Part shown: positions 1 to 8,852 of the stretch, piece by piece
Layout: each line of letters opens with the position of its first letter
Numbering within the stretch: position 1 is the first letter of the stretch
DNA from: Rubrobacter sp.
Lineage (GTDB): Bacteria; Actinomycetota; Rubrobacteria; Rubrobacterales; Rubrobacteraceae
Length of the DNA: 8,986 nt
Direction: 5' to 3'
Assembly: GCA_013815485.1 (NCBI GenBank)
Contig: JACDGB010000044.1
Span: forward strand, 1 to 8,986
The notes under the pieces: model-generated
Database searches by the model: none
Told to the model about the DNA's origin: nothing
The model's input: only the letters and a program-made list of their open reading frames with translations
Program-made: the position numbers and the translations under genes

Positions 1-1122
1 CTGGCCTTTCTGGAGGAACTCCTCGGCGAAATTCTTCTCCAGTTCACCATTCTCCTGGCGCTCCTTCACGAACGCGGCGAACTCTTCGGTGAGCGGCCCG
101 AAGACGGCTGAGGCTGGGCCGTCCGCTCCGTTGGTCTCGGGGCTTTCTTCGGCGTGGATCTCCAGGCTGAAGTTCAGGCAGCGGCGTTGGAGTTCGCGCA
201 TCAGTTCTCTGTCCACCCCGCTCGCTACCCCGCGCTTCACGTCGAAGACTCGCAGGCGAACGACCGCATCGTCCAGGTCGGCGTTTTGGGTGCGGGTCCG
301 GATCTCCTCAGTCAACCCCTCGGCGTCCAACTCAGCTGCCTTTATCTTCGGGAGGTCCACCATCCGCCGCGACTCTATCTCGACGTGCTCGACGCTCTTG
401 AGACCGCCGTTCTCGAATTCAACGATGGCGAAGCCCGGCTTGGACTCGACTTCTCCGAAGCCGAACCGTTCCGTGGCACCGGCATAGTAGGCGTTTGGTT
501 TGTGCTCGTGGAACTCGTGGTAATGGCCGAGGGCCACGTAATCGAAGCCGCCGGAGATCATATTCGCCTGAAGGTTCGCCTCGCCCATCTCGTGCTGCTT
601 CGCCTCAAGCCCCGGAACCATCCCGTGCGTCACCAGGATGTTGATGTCCGCGTCTCTAGCCAGCGTCACGGCTCCGGTCCCAAAGACAGCCCCGTGCGGA
701 ACCAGCGTCACCCCGACGCCAACGTCGCCGGCCTCGATCAGTTGGTAGTCCAACTCGAAGCCATGCGCGGAGTAGGCGTTCACCAGGTTCGCGTATTCCA
801 GCGCGGCGGTTGTCGTGCGCAGGCGTGGCGTCTCGTGGTTGCCGGCCGCGACCAGGTAGGGAATGCCCGCTCGCGCCGTGATGCGGGCTGTTTGTTTCAG
901 GAAGCCGATGATGACGTGGGTGGCTGGGCGCACCGAGTCGAAGGCGTCGCCGGAGTGGATCACCAGGTCAACATCCCGCTCCAGGATGGCGTCCACCGCC
1001 CGCCCGTAAGCCTCCTGAACGTCAACCTCCCGCTGGTTGCGCCCCGACTCTGGGCACAGCCTCGCGTACCGGGTGTATCCCAGGTGCGTATCCGAGATGT
1101 GGGCGATCCTAATTATTGTCAC
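1..1122 (-). CDS. Mre11/SbcD-type DNA double-strand-break repair nuclease (3' end outside the window)
   Basis: A Mn-dependent calcineurin-like phosphoesterase; family members trim DNA ends with a Rad50/SbcC ATPase. 374 residues are visible and the frame is still open at the edge. All phosphodiesterase motifs are present: D11-T-H13 in ISDTHLG, G58-D59 in HSGDAFDS, G94-N95-H96-E97, H166 in VTHGMVPG, and G199-H200-Y-H202. A YAGATERFG stretch near 213-221 matches the conserved segment after the last histidine motif. Residues from about 230 on would be the capping domain. The GTG start at 1122 is well fixed: a TGA lies nine codons upstream in frame with no other ATG/GTG/TTG between, and the first catalytic Asp is already residue 11. 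It begins inside the methyltransferase gene (14-nt overlap), with purine-rich GGAAG directly before the start, suggesting translational coupling. The domain call is firm; Mre11 versus SbcD is not settled. By family logic the next gene to the left should be a Rad50/SbcC-like ATPase. Confidence 0.93.
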   Translation of the reverse strand, partial: MTIIRIAHISDTHLGYTRYARLCPESGRNQREVDVQEAYGRAVDAILERDVDLVIHSGDAFDSVRPATHVIIGFLKQTARITARAGIPYLVAAGNHETPRLRTTTAALEYANLVNAYSAHGFELDYQLIEAGDVGVGVTLVPHGAVFGTGAVTLARDADINILVTHGMVPGLEAKQHEMGEANLQANMISGGFDYVALGHYHEFHEHKPNAYYAGATERFGFGEVESKPGFAIVEFENGGLKSVEHVEIESRRMVDLPKIKAAELDAEGLTEEIRTRTQNADLDDAVVRLRVFDVKRGVASGVDRELMRELQRRCLNFSLEIHAEESPETNGADGPASAVFGPLTEEFAAFVKERQENGELEKNFAEEFLQKGQ

Positions 1123-2389
1123 CTTCCATTTGCAAAGAGTCGGGAGTCAGTTCCTGAGTTTCGCCTTTCACATGCTCGTCTAGCGCCTCCTGCACGAGCA
1201 TGGGCAAGTCAACTAGTGATTCCTCGACGGCCAAAGCAGTTGAGTTCAAGACCAAAACGTTCTCTGGTAGAGTTTCACGAAACAACGAGTCTTGCTCAGT
1301 TCTCACAAGTATAGCTTTGAGACTGCCTTTCTTTCTAGCCGCCTTGGATAGAAGCTCTGCGGCCTTCATCAATGATTCACCTCGTTTTTGAACACGGATC
1401 AGGACAGGGGTACCCATGTACTGACGCTTCAAGATTGCATCGATACCCTTGTTTCTTTGCACAGGAATGAGGTCGAGCCCACGGAGCAAATTAATGCCCT
1501 CTTCGTCAGCGGTTAGATAAGCACCGCGACCTTTCTGCATCAACTGCGATTCGCTCTTGACCGGCGTCTTCAGTCGAGCTTGCGTGAGCTTTACCGCGTC
1601 CTCCGAAATATCCATTCCGATAGAATTGCGTCCGAGAAGCTTTGCGGCAACCAGAGTAGTGCCGCTTCCGCAGAAGGGGTCAAGAACCACATCGTTGGGT
1701 TCGCTGGCGATCTCGATAATCCGCTCTAGCAACAATATTGGCTTTTGGGTAGGGTAGCCTACACGTTCTTTCGCTTTTGGGTTGAGGTAAGGGATTTCCC
1801 AGACATCGCTCAAAGGAACTCCCTGTTTCTCATCATCCAAGAGGATTTCTTCGTCCTCTGTACGTGCGTAGACGGCCTTACCTTGCTCATTCCTGACCCG
1901 CTTCTGGAGTATTTGGTCGATGTTAGTAGATGCGGAATAGGCATCATAGATGACACGAAACTTATACTGATTTGACTTAGAGTAAAAGTATATTGTCTGG
2001 TGTGCTGGTAGCAAGTTCTTGCCCGCACTCGACCATCTCTTGTAAGACCAGATTATCTCGGAGCGGAACTGATCTTTTCCGTAAACATCGTCTAGCAATG
2101 CTCGGATTACGTGGGTCGCATTCCGGTCACAGTGGACGAAGATGCTTCCTGTCGTCTTCAAAACGCGTTTCATTTCGGAGAGCCGCTTAGAGAGAAATTG
2201 CGCGTACTCCTCGTAATCTCTCCAAAGATCATCGTACGAGAATACATGCGTCCCTACTCTATCTCTCAGGCGATGTACCTTACCTGTGAAGAACGGAGGG
2301 TCCAAGTATATTAAGTCCAGGGACCCGTCGTCGATCTGCTGTAGCAGATCCAAACAATCTCCTTTTAGCACCTGTGCCTTGGTGTTCAT
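1109..2389 (-). CDS. Beta-class DNA N6-adenine/N4-cytosine methyltransferase with a long C-terminal extension
   Basis: Transfers a methyl group from S-adenosylmethionine to an exocyclic amino group of a DNA base; here presumably the protective half of a Type II restriction-modification pair. Catalytic motif IV, D30-P-P-F33 in LIYLDPPF, precedes SAM-binding motif I, DPFCGSGTT (237-245). This order, with the target-recognition region between (about 105-205), defines the beta class. YPTQKP (212-217) is the usual element just before motif I. DPPF is more often seen in adenine-N6 than cytosine-N4 enzymes, so N6-adenine is favoured but not proven. The catalytic domain ends near 275; some 135 residues follow that the family does not require (see findings). 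The ATG overlaps the upstream endonuclease stop as ATGA and has no good Shine-Dalgarno of its own, so coupled translation is likely. The gene is richer in A+T than its flanking genes, pointing to transfer together with the endonuclease. Confidence 0.93.
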   Translation of the reverse strand: MNTKAQVLKGDCLDLLQQIDDGSLDLIYLDPPFFTGKVHRLRDRVGTHVFSYDDLWRDYEEYAQFLSKRLSEMKRVLKTTGSIFVHCDRNATHVIRALLDDVYGKDQFRSEIIWSYKRWSSAGKNLLPAHQTIYFYSKSNQYKFRVIYDAYSASTNIDQILQKRVRNEQGKAVYARTEDEEILLDDEKQGVPLSDVWEIPYLNPKAKERVGYPTQKPILLLERIIEIASEPNDVVLDPFCGSGTTLVAAKLLGRNSIGMDISEDAVKLTQARLKTPVKSESQLMQKGRGAYLTADEEGINLLRGLDLIPVQRNKGIDAILKRQYMGTPVLIRVQKRGESLMKAAELLSKAARKKGSLKAILVRTEQDSLFRETLPENVLVLNSTALAVEESLVDLPMLVQEALDEHVKGETQELTPDSLQMEGDNN

Positions 2390-3012
2390 CTTTCAGCAGA
2401 GTTCTCTTGTGCGATTTTTTCGAGGATACTCTTTAGCTGTATGCCAGTCCGGGCTGCCACATAATCCCAGGCACCATCGCCGTAATGATATTCGCCTCCT
2501 ATTCCTCCATATAGAGTCTCTAATGTTTGCTGTATACGGATAGCCTGCCTTCTGTTGGGATAATAGAACATGACTCTGATAGGTTTGTAGCCTGCCTCTG
2601 CGATAACTCTTATACGAGTGTGCTCCTTCGTTATGTGGTCGCCGTCCGTCGTAGCGTCACGCCACTTGATCTCTATGGCGTTAGTTCCCTCTAAACAATC
2701 TATTTCGAATGTCTTGGGACGCGTTCCCCAGGTGTTCGGAATCCGTACAGAACCTGACTCTGGAAAAGCGTGAAGGAAACTTTTCTTGGTGGCCTCTTCT
2801 AAGAACGAGCCTGCGTACCTGTAAACGAAACGGCCCTTGTTCTGGTAGATATCAACTCGCTCCCCCTCTTCGTAGCTTATCCCCAAAACTTGGTAAATCA
2901 GGTAGTGAGAATGGTCGTCAGCTTCCATCTCGACAACTCGATCATGCATCTGCTTCTCTAGTTGCTTAGAGTATCTGGCCGCCAACTCTCTAATGTCACT
3001 ATCGATGCTCAT
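2386..3012 (-). CDS. ApaLI-family Type II restriction endonuclease
   Basis: A 208-residue protein that I recognise as an ApaLI-type restriction endonuclease by its overall look, including the run EADDHSHYLIYQVLGIS (30-46), DIYQNKGRF (54-62) and IKWRDATTDGDHITKEHT (115-132). ApaLI itself cuts GTGCAC; whether this relative keeps that site cannot be read from sequence. A PD-(D/E)xK-type active site is visible: D105 in FEID, then E114-I-K116 in AIEIKW. Length fits a complete single-domain enzyme. The ATG at 3012 has a GGAG four bases upstream, a slightly short spacing. The stop overlaps the methyltransferase ATG by 4 nt, the usual tight pairing of R and M genes. No C protein or other regulator gene is present. 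Its A+T-rich base composition resembles the methyltransferase and not HerA. Family assignment rests on memory of the family, not a search; the nuclease fold call is more secure than the family name. Confidence 0.8.
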   Translation of the reverse strand: MSIDSDIRELAARYSKQLEKQMHDRVVEMEADDHSHYLIYQVLGISYEEGERVDIYQNKGRFVYRYAGSFLEEATKKSFLHAFPESGSVRIPNTWGTRPKTFEIDCLEGTNAIEIKWRDATTDGDHITKEHTRIRVIAEAGYKPIRVMFYYPNRRQAIRIQQTLETLYGGIGGEYHYGDGAWDYVAARTGIQLKSILEKIAQENSAER

Positions 3013-3049
3013 GCGGCTCCACTGAGTATCCCGGATCGCCTATCAAAGT

Positions 3050-5107
3050 TTAGTCCCTCATCCGATCCAGGCCGGAGAGTATCTGCGAGGACTCGCGCCG
3101 ACGGGATGGACGATTGCCGCGGGTGAGGTTCCAGCGGAAGTTTTTGTAGGGGTCGGCGGCGCCGTGGCCGGTGCGGTGGGCGGCCTGCACGGCGTCGAGG
3201 GCTTCGTAGACTTTCTCTTCGGGGACGCCTTCTATGTCCTCGCGGATGGCGGAGATCCCGGGCGGCTTGCTCGTCAGGTTCCTCATCACGGAGAGGACGG
3301 AGGTGGCGGCGTCGCCCCGGTGCTCGCCGAAGATGTCAGTGCCCTGCTTGCCCATGAGGACCATCGGGCGCGGGAACGTCCCGAAGACGGGGACGGCGTA
3401 GTGGGCGTGACGGCAGAGAAGGCGGCCTTTCTCTAGCTGGAGTAGCTCCTCGCGGGTGGTGCCGGAGAAGGAACGGTAGCTGCTGTTGGTCAGCTCCTCG
3501 TCGCCTATGCGGCCGTAGAGGCTGGTGGCGGCGTTGCCGATGACCTCGTCGTCCACCTTGCTGCGGAACTGCTGCGCCCCAAAGAGCGTCAGGTTGAGGT
3601 GACGTCCGCGCGCGGAGATGTCCACGAGCGTGTCCTTGAGGGATGAGGTGCGGGAGTTACCCGCGGGAGCGTACTTGTTCAACTCGTCCACGAAGATGAT
3701 GAGCTTGTCCACGCCGAGGCGTCCGCTCTCGGCTAGTTCCCATATTTTGGAGATGACGCTGGTTACGATGAGGTCTTGGGGGATGCCGGTGAGCTGGGAG
3801 ATGTCCACGACGCGCATCTCGTTGTTCTCGAACGGACCTTCCACGCGGGGGAGGTCGCCGTGCTCGACTTTCCCGTGCGCGAGCAGGCCGCCGCATTTGG
3901 TCGGGAGGATTTTGAAGCGGTTGCGGACTTTGGCGATGGTCATGTGGTTGTGGCCGTTCCAGGAGGAGATGTTCTTGCCGTCCTCGCGGGCCGCCTCGAA
4001 ATAGTCTTCTATTTCATCGAGCAACCCGTAAAAATCCGCCTGTGTTCGTATCCCCTGGTCCCGAAGCTCCTCGATGAACCCCCGGAATTTGTCGTCCATG
4101 TCCGACGGCTCGAAGACGTAGCCAGCATACGGCAGCACGTCGCCTAGCTCCCAGATGATCGGGAACACGTTCGAGTCCTCGCCCCGCGCATTCCGCAAAG
4201 TGTTCAACTTGCGCGTCGGTACGCCCTCGGCGTGGATGACCCGTTCCCCAGCCTCCATCCCGTACCGCATCGGGGCGAAGATGCGGAGGTTGTCGAAAGG
4301 CTGAATGTCGAGGCCGAGCGAGGCGTACATCTCGCGGTCCTCCCGTGGCAGGCCCTTCTGTCCGGCCTTTTCGTAGCGCTCGGCCAGTTCGGGGTCATTC
4401 GCCGGGTCCACCTCGACCGGCTTGTCCAGGAACAGGAGGTCAGCGCCCTTGACGTTGAACATAAGCGCAGCGACTTTCTTGTCTTTCATGGTCTGGAAGG
4501 TGCTCGCGATGGTGAAGAGGGCGTGGCTGGTCTTGGTCGAGAGACCGCTCATGCCGGTGATGTTCAGATGCCCGGCCTCGGGACCGAGGAGATAGTCGCC
4601 GTCCACGTACAGGGGCGTGCGCTGCGGAGTCCCATCCTTCTCGTTGCCGTTCTCGTGCAGGAGCATCGGGATGTGATGTCCCGAGAACTCCTCAGCGCCG
4701 AGAGCGTACTCGATGGCGGCGCTCGTGGCGAAGAAGACCGGACCCGTCCTCACGGGACGCTTGGACTTCTTCTTCTCGTGGCGGTGCTTGGTGGCGAGGA
4801 CGCGGGCTTTGAAGACGAGTATCTCGACCCGCTCGCTCAATGCCTCAAGCGCCGGATCGCCGTCGTAGGCGTAGAAATCGTCGAGGAAGGACTGGAGGTC
4901 GGAGTAGCGTTGTGGGTCGTCGAGGACGGCGATGGCTGTGGCGTCTTCGGCCTCGGCGGCCACGATGTGCCCGATATCCAGGTTCTGGGCGGCCTCCGTC
5001 TCGGCGGTCCAGAAATAGAACTCGTGGGCGGTGGCCGGGTTCTCCTCGCTGGTTACTACGCGACCGATGGGGCCGAGGTCCATGTCCAAATAGTTCGGGT
5101 GCAGCAT
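3050..5107 (-). CDS. HerA-type hexameric DNA-translocase ATPase
   Basis: A FtsK/HerA-superfamily ATPase of 685 residues, expected to form a ring that drives DNA into the partner nuclease NurA. The N-terminus (LGPIGRVV at 11-18, then a beta-rich stretch to about 110) is consistent with a HAS-barrel. The Walker A region is GMSGLSTKTS (185-194), which departs from the canonical GxxxxGK[ST]: the residue before K192 is T, not G. Walker B is LIIFVDE (469-475), with D474 and E475. A RGRHLNLTLFGAQQ segment (500-513) matches the polar sensor strand of the superfamily, and R502 and R533 are possible arginine fingers. About 270 residues lie between the two Walker motifs, which makes it longer than many archaeal HerA proteins. 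The basic tail after about 655 looks disordered. The ATG directly follows the nurA stop with no gap and has a strong GGGAGG six bases upstream inside nurA, so the two are made together. Confidence 0.88.
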   Translation of the reverse strand: MLHPNYLDMDLGPIGRVVTSEENPATAHEFYFWTAETEAAQNLDIGHIVAAEAEDATAIAVLDDPQRYSDLQSFLDDFYAYDGDPALEALSERVEILVFKARVLATKHRHEKKKSKRPVRTGPVFFATSAAIEYALGAEEFSGHHIPMLLHENGNEKDGTPQRTPLYVDGDYLLGPEAGHLNITGMSGLSTKTSHALFTIASTFQTMKDKKVAALMFNVKGADLLFLDKPVEVDPANDPELAERYEKAGQKGLPREDREMYASLGLDIQPFDNLRIFAPMRYGMEAGERVIHAEGVPTRKLNTLRNARGEDSNVFPIIWELGDVLPYAGYVFEPSDMDDKFRGFIEELRDQGIRTQADFYGLLDEIEDYFEAAREDGKNISSWNGHNHMTIAKVRNRFKILPTKCGGLLAHGKVEHGDLPRVEGPFENNEMRVVDISQLTGIPQDLIVTSVISKIWELAESGRLGVDKLIIFVDELNKYAPAGNSRTSSLKDTLVDISARGRHLNLTLFGAQQFRSKVDDEVIGNAATSLYGRIGDEELTNSSYRSFSGTTREELLQLEKGRLLCRHAHYAVPVFGTFPRPMVLMGKQGTDIFGEHRGDAATSVLSVMRNLTSKPPGISAIREDIEGVPEEKVYEALDAVQAAHRTGHGAADPYKNFRWNLTRGNRPSRRRESSQILSGLDRMRD

Positions 5108-6259
5108 CTAATTCCTCCCGTTCGCCGGTGGGTCTTCGGCGAGTTGGCGTTCCAGCCTCGCGTATGTACGTTCGGAGCCCTGTACGAGGGGCTTGAGGAT
5201 CTTCTCCACGTAATGAATAGGGTAGATCATGGCGGGCCATCTCGGGTCCGGCTTCGCAAGCGGCGCGCGCTCCGCCAGGACCCAACGCGAGATCTCGTCT
5301 ATCTGATCCGGCTCCGTGTCCCGCTGAGCCTCGATCCTCATCAACGAGCCCAATGCGTCCGCGCCCTGTTGCGGCGGCCACATCCGCAGATACCATGAGG
5401 TCCGGTGATCGCTCGGGTTGCGTCGCAACTGCCAGTCCGGGACGAAGCTCGTCGTCCGCATCCCCGGTTCCAGGTCGAGGAGCATCCCGACGTCTTTGCC
5501 CACGAACTCGGGGCGGGCGACGCTCTTTATGAGGCCGATGGCGCGGCGGTTGGACTCCCGGATCTCCTTGAGCTGTCCGTCAACCGCGATCCAGGCGTCC
5601 GTGTCCTCCAGCGTCCGATCATCACCCTCCCACTGTCGCAGCATCCCACCTTCCAACCGCTCCCGCAATGCCCGAACTCGCACGCGGGAACGCTCTCTCA
5701 TCCCGACGTAATCCGAAGGGTCGGCATCGGCCATGTACTCAGCCGAGTCGAGGATCAGGTGTTCCGATGAGGGGACTTCGTCCGGGCCAAGCTCCGAGAA
5801 CCCGGCCTCGATCAAGAGTTCCCAGAATGCCTCGACGCCCGGTTCTCCTGCGCTACGGGGTAGGATCACCGTCTGCACCACAACCGGCGGGCTCTCCATC
5901 GGCATGCGCGAGAACCGCCTCTCGCACCGGTTGATTATCGCGGCGGCGACGGTCGCCACCACGACCGGGGACATCTCTATCCGCCCGATCTCGCGCGCGC
6001 TCTGCACGCCATCCAGGAAGTAACACAGCCGTGATGTGCCGTCGTGGGCACCGGGGTCCCGTGGTCCGGGCGGCGTCTCCAAATGATGGGGCCTCCCCGG
6101 AGGGAACTGCTCCTCTTCCGATGGGAGGTTGGCGAACTGCTGGGCCTCCAGGTCGCAGGAGCCAGCGCCCGCCGTAATATGTATGCCTTTGCGGCGGGCG
6201 TTCGCCAGCGCATCGCCGATCTTCTGCGCGAAATCTTTGGAAATGCTCCCCGATAGCAT
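5108..6259 (-). CDS. NurA-domain nuclease
   Basis: NurA proteins are Mn-dependent nucleases with an RNase H-like fold that work inside or next to the HerA ring to resect DNA 5' ends. Visible landmarks fit that family in the right order: D83 in YFLDGVQ (first metal-binding Asp), a long helical middle, D227 in WIAVDGQL followed by K245 in GLIKS, an R-I-E at 308-310, and the C-terminal YPIHYVEKIL (346-355) carrying H349. Residues 45-75 are rich in E, P and H and look like a flexible linker. Overall similarity is weak, as is usual for NurA, but direct adjacency to HerA supports it strongly. The start is the less certain part: ATG 6259 has only GGTGG next to it, no in-frame ATG/GTG/TTG lies between it and the upstream stop at 6317, and a better purine tract (6306-6315) sits 47 nt upstream in front of a TTG in another frame. 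Confidence 0.82.
   Translation of the reverse strand: MLSGSISKDFAQKIGDALANARRKGIHITAGAGSCDLEAQQFANLPSEEEQFPPGRPHHLETPPGPRDPGAHDGTSRLCYFLDGVQSAREIGRIEMSPVVVATVAAAIINRCERRFSRMPMESPPVVVQTVILPRSAGEPGVEAFWELLIEAGFSELGPDEVPSSEHLILDSAEYMADADPSDYVGMRERSRVRVRALRERLEGGMLRQWEGDDRTLEDTDAWIAVDGQLKEIRESNRRAIGLIKSVARPEFVGKDVGMLLDLEPGMRTTSFVPDWQLRRNPSDHRTSWYLRMWPPQQGADALGSLMRIEAQRDTEPDQIDEISRWVLAERAPLAKPDPRWPAMIYPIHYVEKILKPLVQGSERTYARLERQLAEDPPANGRN
5114..5119 (-). promoter_or_regulatory. Strong ribosome binding site of the herA-like gene, inside the end of nurA
   Basis: GGGAGG, six bases before ATG 5107, forms part of the last codons of nurA (the final residues N-G-R-N). It fixes the ATPase start and shows that both genes are translated from one message with no gap. 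Confidence 0.75.
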
Positions 6260-6316: not shown

Positions 6317-6886
6317 CTATTCAGGTAGAGATACAGGCAACTCGAAGTTGCGTTCGGCTAAAGAGACGGCGTTACGGAAGCCGCGGCGTTCCTCGGGCGT
6401 ATCCCCGTAGGCGTCGCGGGCCATCTTGAGGATCTTCTTCGCCTCGGATCTCTGGTCCTGGCCGTTGGGGATCTCCTTGGAGAAAGCGTATGCGAGGTCG
6501 CCGTTCTCTGCCTCGTAGAAGTGGAAGTAGATGCTCTTCTGGCGTCCGAGGCCGGTGATGGCGGCGTCGCCAGAGACCTGAGAGATGTTCAGCAAGGTTC
6601 CGGCTGAGAAAGGCTCGCCAGCTTCGGGGTAGACGGAGAAGGCGAGTCGGACGACGGGTCCGTAGAAAGTCTTGTAGAACTCGAGTTGGCGCACGATGCT
6701 GGCCGCGCCCCGGATGGCGTCTATCTCCGCCTTCGAGGCGGCGGCCACTATGTGGCATTGAGGGGGGCGCATCGAGTCGCGGCCCTGGGTGGAGATCACC
6801 CGCGCCTGCGCGCCCCTCGAATCCACGGTCGCCGCGATGCTTTGACGCACCCGCTCCGGAAGGTCGAGGCCCTGGGGGTGCTCCAT
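6317..6886 (-). CDS. Unrecognised 189-residue protein upstream of nurA
   Basis: I do not recognise this protein. It is soluble-looking, with no signal peptide or membrane span. Features seen: an N-terminal acidic/basic helix (10-35), a likely helix with KAEIDAIRGAASIVRQLEF (52-70), a central hydrophobic, aromatic strand region (VVRLAFSVYP 78-87; IYFHFYEAENGDLAYAF 119-135), and a charged C-terminal helix pair (147-182). No nuclease, ATPase or helix-turn-helix motif is evident. The frame opens as far as an ATG at 6958, but that start would overlap the peptidase by 73 nt; ATG 6886 is preferred because it joins the peptidase stop as TGATG and has GGGGA a few bases upstream. Its stop lies 57 nt before nurA, so it probably travels with the nurA-herA pair and could be a partner of that complex, but this is only a positional argument. 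Confidence 0.75.
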   Translation of the reverse strand: MEHPQGLDLPERVRQSIAATVDSRGAQARVISTQGRDSMRPPQCHIVAAASKAEIDAIRGAASIVRQLEFYKTFYGPVVRLAFSVYPEAGEPFSAGTLLNISQVSGDAAITGLGRQKSIYFHFYEAENGDLAYAFSKEIPNGQDQRSEAKKILKMARDAYGDTPEERRGFRNAVSLAERNFELPVSLPE

Positions 6887-8235
6887 CAGTCCCCGAACCT
6901 CTCGAAGAAGCTGCCAAAGTAATTGACCGCCCCAAAATAATCGTCGAGCCGGACCCATTCGTTTGGTGAGTGAAGGCGGCTATCAGTGTTCGCCACGCTC
7001 CCGGCCATGATGGTCGGTATCCCAAGCTCCGTGACGATGAGGGAGGTCGGGCCGCTGCCGCCGACGGTCGGATAGACGACCGCCTCCTCGACGCCGAGGT
7101 CTTCCCACGCTTCGACCGCCGTGCGGACGATGGGGGAGTCCACGGGCGTCTTCGCCGCCTCGACGCCGTGAAGGTCTATTACTTCCACGTCGTCGAAGCC
7201 GCGCTTGTGGAGATGGTTTCTTATCAACTCCAGCACAGGCCCCGGACTCTGCCCGGAGACGAGCCGGAAGTCCATCTTCACGAACGCCTCGGAAGGCACG
7301 ATGGTCTTTGACCCAGGCCCCGTGTAGCCGGACTGCATCCCGGCGATGTTCGCGGTCGGGCGGAGGAGCATATCGCGCAACGCCGCTTCGCTGGTGAGAT
7401 CCCTGTCGAAGGCTTCCACGCCCCACGATGATTTCAGCGTGGCTTCGTCGAAGGGGATGCGGTTTATGGCTTCGAGGTCTTTCTCGGAGGGTGGGTCGGC
7501 GAGGTCATCGAGGCCGTCGAGCGTGATTTCTCCGTCTTCGTCTTTGATGGTCCGCAGGGCCTGGATGAGCCGCCAGGCGGGGTTGGGGGCGATGCCGCCG
7601 TACATGCTGTGGAGGTCGTGGGAGGCACCTTTCGCACGCAGCTCGACGTAGGCCATACCCTTCGTCCCGCAGAAGATGAGAGGGCGTCCCGCGCCGTCCT
7701 TCATCGAGCCTTCCCACAGGCAGGCGTCGGCGGCGAGTAGTTCGGCGTTGTCCCTCACGAACGGGGCGAGGTTCGGGCTGCCGACTTCTTCTTCGCCTTC
7801 GATCAGGAATTTCAGCTTGAACGGGAGCGAGCCGTGCTCTTCCATAAAAAGCTGGAGCGCCTGGATGCGGGCGAGCACGTCTCCCTTGTCGTCGGCGACG
7901 CCGCGGGCGAAGATGCCGCCGTCGCGCAGGGTGGGCTCGAACGGGTCGCTCTCCCACAGTTCCAGCGGCTCTGGCGGCTGCACGTCGTAGTGACCGTATG
8001 AGAGGAGCGTCTTCTCTCCGGCTCCGATCTCCGCGTACACGACCGGGTGGCCGTCCGTCTCCATCAGGCGGGCGTTTGCGCCGGCCTCTCGCAGTTTCTC
8101 CGCGACCCATTCGGCGCATTCCCGGAAGCTGTCCGGGTCTTCTTTACGGGCCGAGATCGAGGGCATCCTCAAGAACTCTTTCAACTCTTCGAGGAGCTCG
8201 TCCCTGGCACCGCTCACGCGCTCTTGTATGCTCAT
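6886..8235 (-). CDS. M20-family metallopeptidase (dipeptidase type)
   Basis: A cytoplasmic zinc-dependent exopeptidase of 449 residues, a normal full length for M20 dipeptidases. The co-catalytic metal site is complete: H82-Y-D84 in SYGHYDVQPP, the bridging Asp in FARGVADDKGD (D115), the catalytic/metal acidic pair in LIEGEEEVGSP (E148/E149), a further acidic position in the D170-W174 area, and H422 in SRLHSPNE. The lid/dimerisation domain lies around 195-310, with H206/H209 in SHDLHSMYGG. It probably cleaves dipeptides or related amide bonds; the exact substrate cannot be told. The ATG has GGAGG at 8243-8247, seven bases upstream. It is the first gene of the minus-strand series and its stop overlaps the next start by one base, so it is likely co-transcribed with the DNA-end-processing genes although no functional link is apparent. 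Confidence 0.95.
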   Translation of the reverse strand: MSIQERVSGARDELLEELKEFLRMPSISARKEDPDSFRECAEWVAEKLREAGANARLMETDGHPVVYAEIGAGEKTLLSYGHYDVQPPEPLELWESDPFEPTLRDGGIFARGVADDKGDVLARIQALQLFMEEHGSLPFKLKFLIEGEEEVGSPNLAPFVRDNAELLAADACLWEGSMKDGAGRPLIFCGTKGMAYVELRAKGASHDLHSMYGGIAPNPAWRLIQALRTIKDEDGEITLDGLDDLADPPSEKDLEAINRIPFDEATLKSSWGVEAFDRDLTSEAALRDMLLRPTANIAGMQSGYTGPGSKTIVPSEAFVKMDFRLVSGQSPGPVLELIRNHLHKRGFDDVEVIDLHGVEAAKTPVDSPIVRTAVEAWEDLGVEEAVVYPTVGGSGPTSLIVTELGIPTIMAGSVANTDSRLHSPNEWVRLDDYFGAVNYFGSFFERFGD

Positions 8236-8330: not shown

Positions 8331-8342
8331 GAAGATTGCCTC

Positions 8343-8852
8343 ATGTCTATCGAGAAGAGACAGGATCCCGCCCCGGAGCGCCGTCACCACGGTCGGGACG
8401 AGGACGACTTCTTCGGACTCGACGTTCGCAGCATGAGCCCGAGAGCGCAGGTAGTGACATCGCTCGCGGTCTTGATACCCGTCGTGGTTGGGGCAACCCT
8501 GGCCTTGACTTTTGGACCGTGGTGGCTGATCTTCGTTTTCGGCTGGATGGTCTTCCCTGCCTCCAGTCTGCTGGTGCGCGGGATCGCGGGTCTCTCCGAG
8601 GGCAGTGGCTCGAAGCCGCTGACAGGGAACGGCGGAGAACGGGAGCTTCTCGGGGCGCTGCGGGAGCAGGGAGAGTTGACCTCCGCGCAGGCTGCGATGG
8701 AGACCTCGCTCTCGGTGGCGGAGGCGGACGCGATGCTCAAAGGACTGGCCTCGGGCGGTCATCTGGACGTGCGGGTGCGTGGCGGCGGGCTGTTCTACGC
8801 TTTGTGGGAGCATGAGCGGGGAGAGTCGCGGGAGCTTCGAGGACGGGGCTAG
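8343..8852 (+). CDS. Small membrane protein with a C-terminal winged-helix-like domain
   Basis: 169 residues, not recognised by name. After a charged N-terminus (1-33) come two membrane spans, about 37-57 (VVTSLAVLIPVVVGATLAL) and 60-83 (WWLIFVFGWMVFPASSLLVRG), then a Gly/Ser linker. The last 65 residues look like a winged helix: ERELLGALREQG (99-110), ELTSAQAAMETSL (111-123), SVAEADAMLKGLASGGHLDV (124-143), and a Gly-rich wing (RGGGLFYALWE, 146-156). This resembles regulatory domains where each helix-turn-helix unit reads as a level of control, but whether it binds DNA or protein is unknown. The reading frame is open far upstream through the peptidase gene, but ATG 8343 is chosen because earlier codons are antisense to that gene and a promoter-like element ends just before it. 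There is no clear Shine-Dalgarno, which fits near-leaderless translation. Confidence 0.72.
   Translation: MSIEKRQDPAPERRHHGRDEDDFFGLDVRSMSPRAQVVTSLAVLIPVVVGATLALTFGPWWLIFVFGWMVFPASSLLVRGIAGLSEGSGSKPLTGNGGERELLGALREQGELTSAQAAMETSLSVAEADAMLKGLASGGHLDVRVRGGGLFYALWEHERGESRELRGRG

What the first reader, a model, noticed from the sequence alone, without database searches (positions are those of the whole stretch)
1..6259. NurA-HerA and Mre11 genes in one operon with a restriction-modification pair between them
Seen: NurA, HerA, an ApaLI-like endonuclease, a DNA methyltransferase and Mre11 follow one another on one strand with gaps of 0, 37, -4 and -14 nt. Known: HerA-NurA with Mre11-Rad50 is the archaeal end-resection operon; in bacteria the set is much less standard. 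Inference: the cluster may be a combined defence module in which the endonuclease cuts unmodified DNA and the HerA-NurA motor plus Mre11 destroy the ends, analogous in logic to restriction followed by RecBCD digestion. If so it would be an unusual two-stage immune system. The simpler alternative is a repair operon that happened to receive an R-M pair.
Basis: partly seen in the sequence, partly recalled or inferred. Interest (0 to 1): 0.75.

Follow-up and report, generated by a model that had tools for sequence, protein, structure and literature searches.

The report
Swappable immune-gene slot inside repair operon
In Rubrobacter-family bacteria the operon predicted to process broken DNA ends has a gap between two of its genes that close relatives fill with different genes, many of restriction, abortive-infection or toxin types, likely exchanged by recombination; in this genome it holds a restriction-modification pair, which likely works on its own and not as part of a new two-step immune machine.

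Summary
In detail: nurA, herA, an ApaLI-family REase, an N6/N4 MTase and mre11 (cut by the contig end) run on one strand with gaps 0, 37, -4 and -14 nt. But the place matters. Of 30 resolved herA|mre11 junctions in Rubrobacteraceae, 21 carry 0.5-3.5 kb of extra DNA; four neighbouring junctions show 0/31, 3/33, 0/37 and 0/36. Cargo differs between close relatives (2 of 11 pairs with HerA at least 90% identical share half of it): ApaLI R-M, XhoI R-M (seen from the mre11 side), MrcB-HNH, AbiV, RelA/SpoT, ParE and DUF5615 modules, but also non-defence genes. No tRNA was found and no mobility gene among the ORFs scanned; three cargoes hold pieces of herA or mre11 ends, which points to recombination. 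The window's MTase ends in an antitoxin-like tail and runs into mre11. Best reading: a small core defence hotspot embedded in an end-resection operon. Two-stage immunity is untested and not needed.

The parts
5108..6259 (-). nurA, bacterial (Deinococcus-type) NurA nuclease, 383 aa
   Evidence: profile of 10 sequences hits 7f6d_H NurA 9.4e-8 and 1zup 2.2e-4
3050..5107 (-). herA, bacterial (Deinococcus-type) HerA ATPase, 685 aa
   Evidence: profile of 10 sequences hits 7f6d_B HerA 2.8e-63
2386..3012 (-). ApaLI-family type II restriction endonuclease, 208 aa; D105, E114, K116 the same in the four sequences aligned (window and three relatives)
   Evidence: PF09499 1.7e-91, PADLOC REase_II 1.1e-94, alignment
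1109..2389 (-). type II DNA methyltransferase, 426 aa, DPPF motif before FCGSG motif (beta-type N6A/N4C order, class name recalled)
   Evidence: PF01555 3.6e-57, PADLOC MTase_II 5.1e-169, alignment
1133..1222 (-). C-terminal tail of the MTase (about residues 390-419) that resembles the C-terminus of the antitoxin-like ORF in front of the ParE_like toxin at the same junction of G005, G022, G020
   Evidence: z 11 to 13.5 against shuffles, computed on P0001, which differs from the window by one residue in the tail; also a tblastn hit
1..1122 (-). mre11, 5' 374 codons, cut by the contig end; overlaps the MTase by 14 nt
   Evidence: PF00149 4.8e-14; NCBIfam Mre11 models below cut-off; PDB Mre11 chains
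1123..3049 (-). the herA|mre11 slot as filled in this genome: 48.8% GC against 63.1% in herA and 63.2% in mre11
3787..5887 (-). approximate tract of 99-100% nucleotide identity to the same-genus genome G006, with 91-97% upstream and 89-94% in the last 0.7 kb of herA
   Evidence: 150-base bins; limits are to the bin

Best explanation
The ApaLI-type R-M pair fills a slot between herA and mre11 that holds more than 300 bp of cargo in 21 of 30 resolved Rubrobacteraceae junctions and holds different cargo in close relatives, likely because cargo is exchanged by recombination through the flanking repair genes, and the pair is predicted to act there as an ordinary type II R-M. Shown: the slot is variable while the four neighbouring junctions are nearly fixed, cargo is lower in GC than both flanks in 18 of 21 junctions, and 13 of 21 hold genes of R-M, abortive-infection or toxin-type families. 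Inferred: (1) donors are other Rubrobacteraceae with the same locus, because second copies of the herA 3' end or mre11 5' end sit inside three cargoes; (2) the R-M genes are read from the nurA-herA transcript and mre11-rad50 is read with them, because the promoter-like TAGAAT box that stands before mre11 in 14 of 21 occupied junctions is missing here and the MTase overlaps mre11; (3) the MTase tail is what remains of an antitoxin gene, so the R-M pair came to lie on an older toxin-antitoxin cassette; (4) HerA-NurA and Mre11-Rad50 do their normal end processing and may help cope with cuts, but need not form a complex with the R-M enzymes.
For: Junction counts in loci (gaps above 300 bp: herA|mre11 21 of 30; M20|up213 0 of 31; up213|nurA 3 of 33; nurA|herA 0 of 37; mre11|rad50 0 of 36). 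HerA and Mre11 each in 35 of 39 genomes. Cargo families. Turnover: of 11 pairs of occupied junctions with HerA 90% or more identical (20 junctions compared), 2 share at least half of the cargo; the window and G006 (HerA 99%) share none. GC of cargo below both flanks in 18 of 21. Scars: herA 3' end inside the cargo of G006 and G022, mre11 5' end inside that of G023 (3 of 32 cargo pieces). Identity steps in nurA and herA between the window and G006. No tRNA/tmRNA in 24 loci or the window, no Rfam match in 5 sources. TAGAAT box in 14 of 21 occupied resolved junctions, 4 of 228 control pieces of cargo. MTase tail. ApaLI-type pairs without herA or mre11 on plasmid pA40P2 and in a viral contig.
Against: Not all cargo is defence: LplAB-like (G013, G014), PhoD-like (G011), ASCH-domain genes as the only family match (G001, G008, G010) and unassigned ORFs (G009, G019, G034). 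The families counted genome-wide were chosen because they occur in the slot; an antitoxin family not chosen that way (PhdYeFM) has 0 of 117 copies there. Only 3 of 32 cargo pieces carry flank scars. Six other occupied junctions (G036, G035b, G003, G001, G013, G014) also lack the exact TAGAAT box, so its absence in the window is weak evidence for read-through. Draft genomes dominate, and by their record titles G006, G007 and some others come from one metagenome co-assembly, so the identity steps could partly be assembly effects. One genome rated 100% complete (G012) has neither herA nor mre11. R-M or toxin cargo was not evident in 16 loci of other phyla with large gaps.
Confidence: 0.75

Rival explanations
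1. Combined two-stage immune module: the REase cuts unmodified phage DNA and the linked HerA-NurA and Mre11-Rad50 then degrade the ends as a dedicated partner machine.
For: Tight same-strand packing with overlaps; in this genome mre11 may depend on the R-M transcript; other cargo in the slot also includes nuclease genes (MrcB-HNH, XhoI R-M).
Against: REase in 1 of 39 genomes; 9 of 30 junctions have no cargo, others hold toxin-type, ASCH or metabolic genes; the pair type occurs without these genes elsewhere; 5464 relatives of the REase were found, so it is a widespread enzyme.
Confidence: 0.1
2. Plain accident: a mobile type II R-M pair happened to insert once in a repair operon and the site means nothing.
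For: Only one genome of 39 has this REase; ApaLI-type pairs occur on mobile DNA.
Against: The same junction is filled with other cargo in most relatives; six MTases 72-80% identical to this one carry the same antitoxin-like tail, so the joining is old and shared by several lineages, although their gene context could not be fetched.
Confidence: 0.1
3. Assembly artefact: the contig joins R-M genes of another organism to a Rubrobacter operon.
For: Draft genome, contig of 8986 bases, cargo GC about 14 points lower than flanks.
Against: Both joins lie where independent genomes also change, and the MTase tail matches antitoxin-like ORFs that stand before mre11 in relatives; a chimera would be unlikely to produce this.
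Confidence: 0.03

Closest known systems
Core defense hotspots cDHS1/cDHS2 of Pseudomonas aeruginosa (PMC10250203, passages seen)
   Same: conserved flanking core genes, occupied in most genomes, diverse immune cargo, lower GC, fast change between close relatives, recombination through flanks proposed
   Different: here the slot lies between two genes of a same-strand repair operon, is 0.5-3.5 kb (there medians 26 and 6 kb), has no tRNA or tmRNA nearby, and holds many toxin-type modules and some non-defence genes
Small integration hotspots for R-M systems suggested by PMC4176335 (2014; passages seen)
   Same: small acquired region with R-M genes between two core genes, no mobile element seen
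   Different: that paper infers such hotspots from region sizes; this is a named site with different R-M types in relatives
Deinococcus radiodurans NurA-HerA (PMC9960219, passages seen; PDB 7f6d)
   Same: profile match of both proteins; end-resection nuclease and translocase
   Different: in Rubrobacteraceae the pair lies upstream of mre11-rad50, which resembles the linkage reported for most hyperthermophilic archaea (PMC2288612, abstract and passages), with a cargo slot between
ApaLI-family type II R-M (e.g. plasmid pA40P2 of Psychrobacter)
   Same: REase gene directly before an N6/N4-type MTase gene; REase 54-58% identical to two plasmid and one viral relative, MTase 52-53% to one plasmid and one viral relative
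   Different: here between herA and mre11, and the MTase has an extra antitoxin-like tail

Membership tests
Core defence hotspot | conserved core genes on both flanks | tested here: met
   HerA 35 of 39, Mre11 35 of 39 genomes
Core defence hotspot | occupied in a majority of genomes | tested here: met
   21 of 30 resolved junctions above 300 bp
Core defence hotspot | diverse immune systems in the slot | tested here: met
   R-M, MrcB-HNH, AbiV, RelA/SpoT, ParE, PIN and DUF5615 families in 13 of 21 occupied junctions (DUF5615 and RelA/SpoT are counted as toxin-type by interpretation)
Core defence hotspot | cargo differs between close relatives | tested here: met
   2 of 11 close pairs share half of the cargo
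Core defence hotspot | cargo GC lower than chromosome | tested here: met
   18 of 21 below both flanking genes; whole-chromosome GC was not computed
Core defence hotspot | tRNA/tmRNA landing site at a flank (as in P. aeruginosa) | tested here: not met
   no tRNA or tmRNA in the window or 24 loci; in the passages seen the authors note it but do not make it a requirement
Core defence hotspot | defence genes in excess over the rest of the genome | tested here: inconclusive
   ParE_like 4 of 7, DUF5615 6 of 110, XhoI 2 of 10 places, AbiV 1 of 4 at the junction, but these were picked from it; unselected PhdYeFM 0 of 117
Core defence hotspot | cargo blocks phage | not testable with these tools
   needs phage assays
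Type II R-M system | adjacent REase and MTase with intact motifs | tested here: met
Type II R-M system | both enzymes share one recognition site | not testable with these tools
   needs methylome or digestion data
Dedicated nurA-herA-R-M-mre11 system | gene set kept together in several genomes | tested here: not met
   REase in 1 of 39 genomes; related tailed MTases exist in the protein database but their context could not be fetched
Bacterial NurA-HerA | sequence relation to D. radiodurans HerA and NurA | tested here: met

The most novel reading that the evidence does not exclude
The herA|mre11 slot is a dedicated immune socket: cargo that cuts DNA or arrests the cell is kept on the end-resection transcript because the resection enzymes finish off cut phage DNA or rescue the host from its own cuts, and the cargo in turn cannot be lost without harming mre11-rad50 expression.
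Probability: 0.15. Interest if true: 0.8.

Novelty: new variant of a known kind. Interest (0 to 1): 0.5.

Why it matters
How small R-M and toxin-antitoxin systems move without mobile elements is an open question; this site is a defined place where different systems stand in for each other inside a conserved repair operon, with scars that can be read. It also raises a testable question, whether immune genes that break DNA gain from being transcribed with the enzymes that process broken ends. As a search handle, the herA and mre11 flanks point straight at uncharacterised cargo genes that may be new defence or toxin genes.

Tried and rejected
Dedicated two-stage system: rejected as best reading. 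Same slot with immune cargo in other phyla: 16 loci of Thermomicrobiales/Chloroflexia, Gemmatimonadota and Armatimonadota with large gaps in nurA|herA or herA|mre11 were examined by reading ORF translations only; no R-M or toxin gene was evident (one insert, L087, looks transposase-like), but families were not scanned, and the remaining loci of those phyla were not examined. ApaLI R-M source: plasmids gave 2 records, phages 0, viral contigs 1; no donor could be named. Repeats around the R-M pair: only four short pairs, which I take as chance. Promoter scan of the window: 4 sites against 2.0 expected, not informative. AddAB/RecBCD-type nuclease domain (PF12705): a match in 18 of 39 genomes, many of them in short frames, so whether HerA-NurA is the main resection machine is left open. 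Literature: seven searches listed no paper on a Rubrobacter nurA-herA locus or on cargo between herA and mre11; five of the seven lists were capped, and only open-licence PMC papers are held. The FtsK-HerA comparative paper (recalled) is not held.
Full report
What is in the window. All five genes of the finding are present, on the - strand, with the stated gaps. The window is a whole contig, G000:C486, of a draft genome that is 75% complete in 511 contigs. The closest relatives found by HerA carry Rubrobacter and Rubrobacteraceae record titles, so the host is taken to be of that family. Upstream lie an uncharacterised 213-aa gene (6317-6958) and an M20 peptidase (6886-8235; PF01546). The window's HerA and NurA lack Pfam matches but profiles of ten sequences each match D. 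radiodurans HerA at 2.8e-63 and NurA at 9.4e-8 among solved structures. REase and MTase belong to PF09499 and PF01555 and to PADLOC type II models. REase residues D105, E114 and K116 are the same in the four sequences aligned, and MTase motifs DPPF and FCGSG in the six aligned; that these are the catalytic motifs is recalled knowledge.

HerA is found in 35 of 39 genomes of the order and Mre11 in 35 of 39. Missing HerA: G004 (60% complete), G012 (rated 100%), G017 (82%), G032 (79%). Missing Mre11: G004, G012, G030, G032. The ApaLI REase is in 1 of 39, and PF09499 in 1 of 396 genomes sampled from the phylum. So the five-gene set is not a kept system in these genomes. The protein database does hold close MTase and REase relatives (85% and 91% for the best that are not the window's own cluster), so this pair exists in other lineages outside the genome set; their gene context could not be fetched.

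The junction. Using tblastn positions in Rubrobacteraceae loci, gaps above 300 bp were counted per junction: M20|up213 0 of 31 loci, up213|nurA 3 of 33 (G002, G009, G024), nurA|herA 0 of 37, herA|mre11 21 of 30, mre11|rad50 0 of 36. Loci where a gene is cut or lies on another contig do not enter the counts. The mre11|rad50 distance printed is -4 (ATGA overlap) in 28 of 36 loci and +4 in G010; in seven (G035b, G026, G001, G023, G025, G027, G018b) the assumed mre11 start hit an in-frame stop and the printed distance is not usable. The nine junctions without cargo are G015, G024, G025, G026, G027, G028, G029, G031, G033 (gaps -14 to 75). G035 is counted twice because it has two loci on two contigs; it may be a mix of strains (6% contamination).

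What fills it. ORFs were listed by script and 40 of them, all 70 aa or more and picked by me, were scanned against Pfam in four calls; 38 of the 40 come from this junction (some from contigs seen only from the mre11 side) and two from up213|nurA of G009. Two of the 40 run against the operon. Per resolved occupied junction: window ApaLI R-M; G036 RelA_SpoT plus a 196-aa ORF with a weak HEPN match below cut-off; G022 and G020 ParE_like toxin with an upstream ORF without a family; G016, G006, G003, G023 DUF5615 (PIN-like), G023 also DUF5677; G035b MrcB_N-HNH; G035a AbiV; G021 PIN_3; G037 N6/N4 MTase, a 220-aa ORF without family, an XhoI REase lacking its first part, DUF433 and DUF5615; G011 PhoD-like, ParE_toxin on the opposite strand, ASCH; G001, G008, G010 ASCH; G013 and G014 lipoate-ligase-like (G014 scanned; G013 87% alike by DNA); G009, G019, G034 nothing assigned (most of the G019 cargo matches that of G021). 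That is 13 of 21 with R-M, abortive-infection or toxin-type families. Of seven contigs seen only from the mre11 side, four add an XhoI R-M (G007:C310; the REase lies in two frames), DUF5615 (G017) and ParE_like (G005, G018); for three (G007:C180, G038:C141, G002:C220) nothing was assigned. No integrase, transposase or recombinase family appeared among the scanned ORFs.

Is it enriched for these genes? Genome-wide, ParE_like PF24732 has 7 matches in 39 genomes and 4 lie at this junction; DUF5615 has 110 matches, 6 at the junction; XhoI REase lies at 10 places, 2 at the junction; AbiV has 4 matches, 1 at the junction. These families were chosen because they occur there, so one copy each should be discounted. 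The unselected family PhdYeFM has 117 matches and none at the junction. So the slot collects particular modules rather than all toxin-antitoxin genes, and a general excess of defence genes is not proved.

Turnover and how. Cargo GC is below both flanking genes in 18 of 21 junctions (exceptions G010, G013, G014; window 48.8% against 63%). Of 11 pairs of occupied junctions with HerA at least 90% identical (20 junctions compared; G020 left out because its HerA is cut), 2 share half of their cargo. Pieces of the herA 3' end lie inside the cargo of G006 (88% over 68 bases) and G022 (81% over 47), and a piece of the mre11 5' end (89% over 87) inside that of G023, 3 of 32 cargo pieces. Between the window and G006, nucleotide identity is 91-97% upstream, 99-100% through most of nurA and the first two thirds of herA, 89-94% at the herA 3' end, and 75-92% in mre11. 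No tRNA, tmRNA or, in the five sources tried, Rfam RNA marks the site. I read this as exchange by homologous recombination through the flanking genes; this step is inferred, and co-assembly of related strains could mimic part of the identity pattern.

The window's own fill. In 14 of 21 occupied resolved junctions a TAGAAT box stands before mre11 (24-35 bp in 13, 72 bp in one); it also occurs in 3 of 9 empty junctions and in 6 of 7 contigs seen only from the mre11 side, and in 4 of 228 control pieces of cargo. Seven of the 21 lack the exact box, the window among them: there the MTase runs into mre11. The MTase ends in a tail like the C-terminus of the antitoxin-like ORF before the ParE_like toxin of G005. 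Twenty of the 120 listed MTase relatives were scored: P0001 (the cluster that holds the window's protein, one residue different in the tail), P0003 and P0005-P0009 have z of 8 or more against that ORF, P0002 z 5, P0004 1.4, and the other eleven at most 1.5 against any of the three ORFs used. P0005, P0006 and P0008 stop exactly at the ESL end of the antitoxin-like ORF (for P0005 and P0006, for P0008). So MTases of this clade have long been joined to a piece of a toxin-antitoxin cassette of the kind seen at this site; the toxin gene is absent in the window. Whether the tail still binds a toxin is unknown.

Outside the family. In 16 loci of Thermomicrobiales/Chloroflexia, Gemmatimonadota and Armatimonadota with large gaps, the ORFs read look like metabolic, transport, transposase-like or degenerate sequence; no families were scanned there.

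Literature. PMC10250203 (passages seen) describes core defence hotspots in P. aeruginosa with conserved flanks, low GC, rapid change and a suggestion of homologous recombination through flanks. PMC4176335 (passages) suggests that R-M mobility may depend on small integration hotspots. PMC9960219 (passages) describes bacterial NurA-HerA and says its role is controversial. PMC2288612 (abstract and passages) says rad50-mre11 are linked to nurA and herA in most hyperthermophilic archaea. Seven searches listed nothing on this slot.

Verdict. The combined immune module is not supported. The site is a small, operon-embedded cargo hotspot, a new variant of core defence hotspots, with a real but untested question about coupling to end resection.

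Noticed in passing
window 1133-1222; P0003, P0005-P0009; L128, L036, L126: MTases of this clade carry an antitoxin-like C-terminal tail; in L036 and L126 a different N-terminal part (with VECKSHKW/VECKSHRW, nuclease-like by my reading) is joined to the same kind of end before a ParE_like toxin. The antitoxin gene seems to be a repeated joining point for unrelated upstream genes.
   Followed up: partly
window 3050-5107 (HerA residues about 185-194): The HerA P-loop region reads GxSGLxTKTS in all 10 sequences aligned and GISGVATKTS in D. radiodurans HerA, without the usual Gly before Lys (canonical form recalled).
   Followed up: partly
G007:C180 and G007:C310 (L123, L124); G035 loci L039 and L043: G007 has two mre11 copies (89-90% to the window) and G035 two herA-mre11 loci with different cargo (HerA 98% alike): duplicate loci or mixed strains.
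   Followed up: no
L112 5307-6833; L119 5767-6893: The up213|nurA junction also has inserts in G024 and G009 (1.5 and 1.1 kb; the latter with an HSDR_N match), so a second, rarer slot may exist.
   Followed up: partly
window 6317-6958: A 213-aa gene without Pfam match stands upstream of nurA in 33 Rubrobacteraceae loci measured and may belong to the operon.
   Followed up: no
window 8336-8852: A small gene at the contig's right end has DNA relatives elsewhere in the same genome (74% and 70% identity on C420 and C307); its translation suggests a membrane part followed by a helix-turn-helix-like part (my reading).
   Followed up: no
G012: A genome rated 100% complete has no match to HerA, Mre11 or PF12705.
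   Followed up: no
L137: A viral contig with terminase- and portal-like genes (my reading) carries an ApaLI-type REase (shortened at its N-terminus) and a matching MTase.
   Followed up: partly
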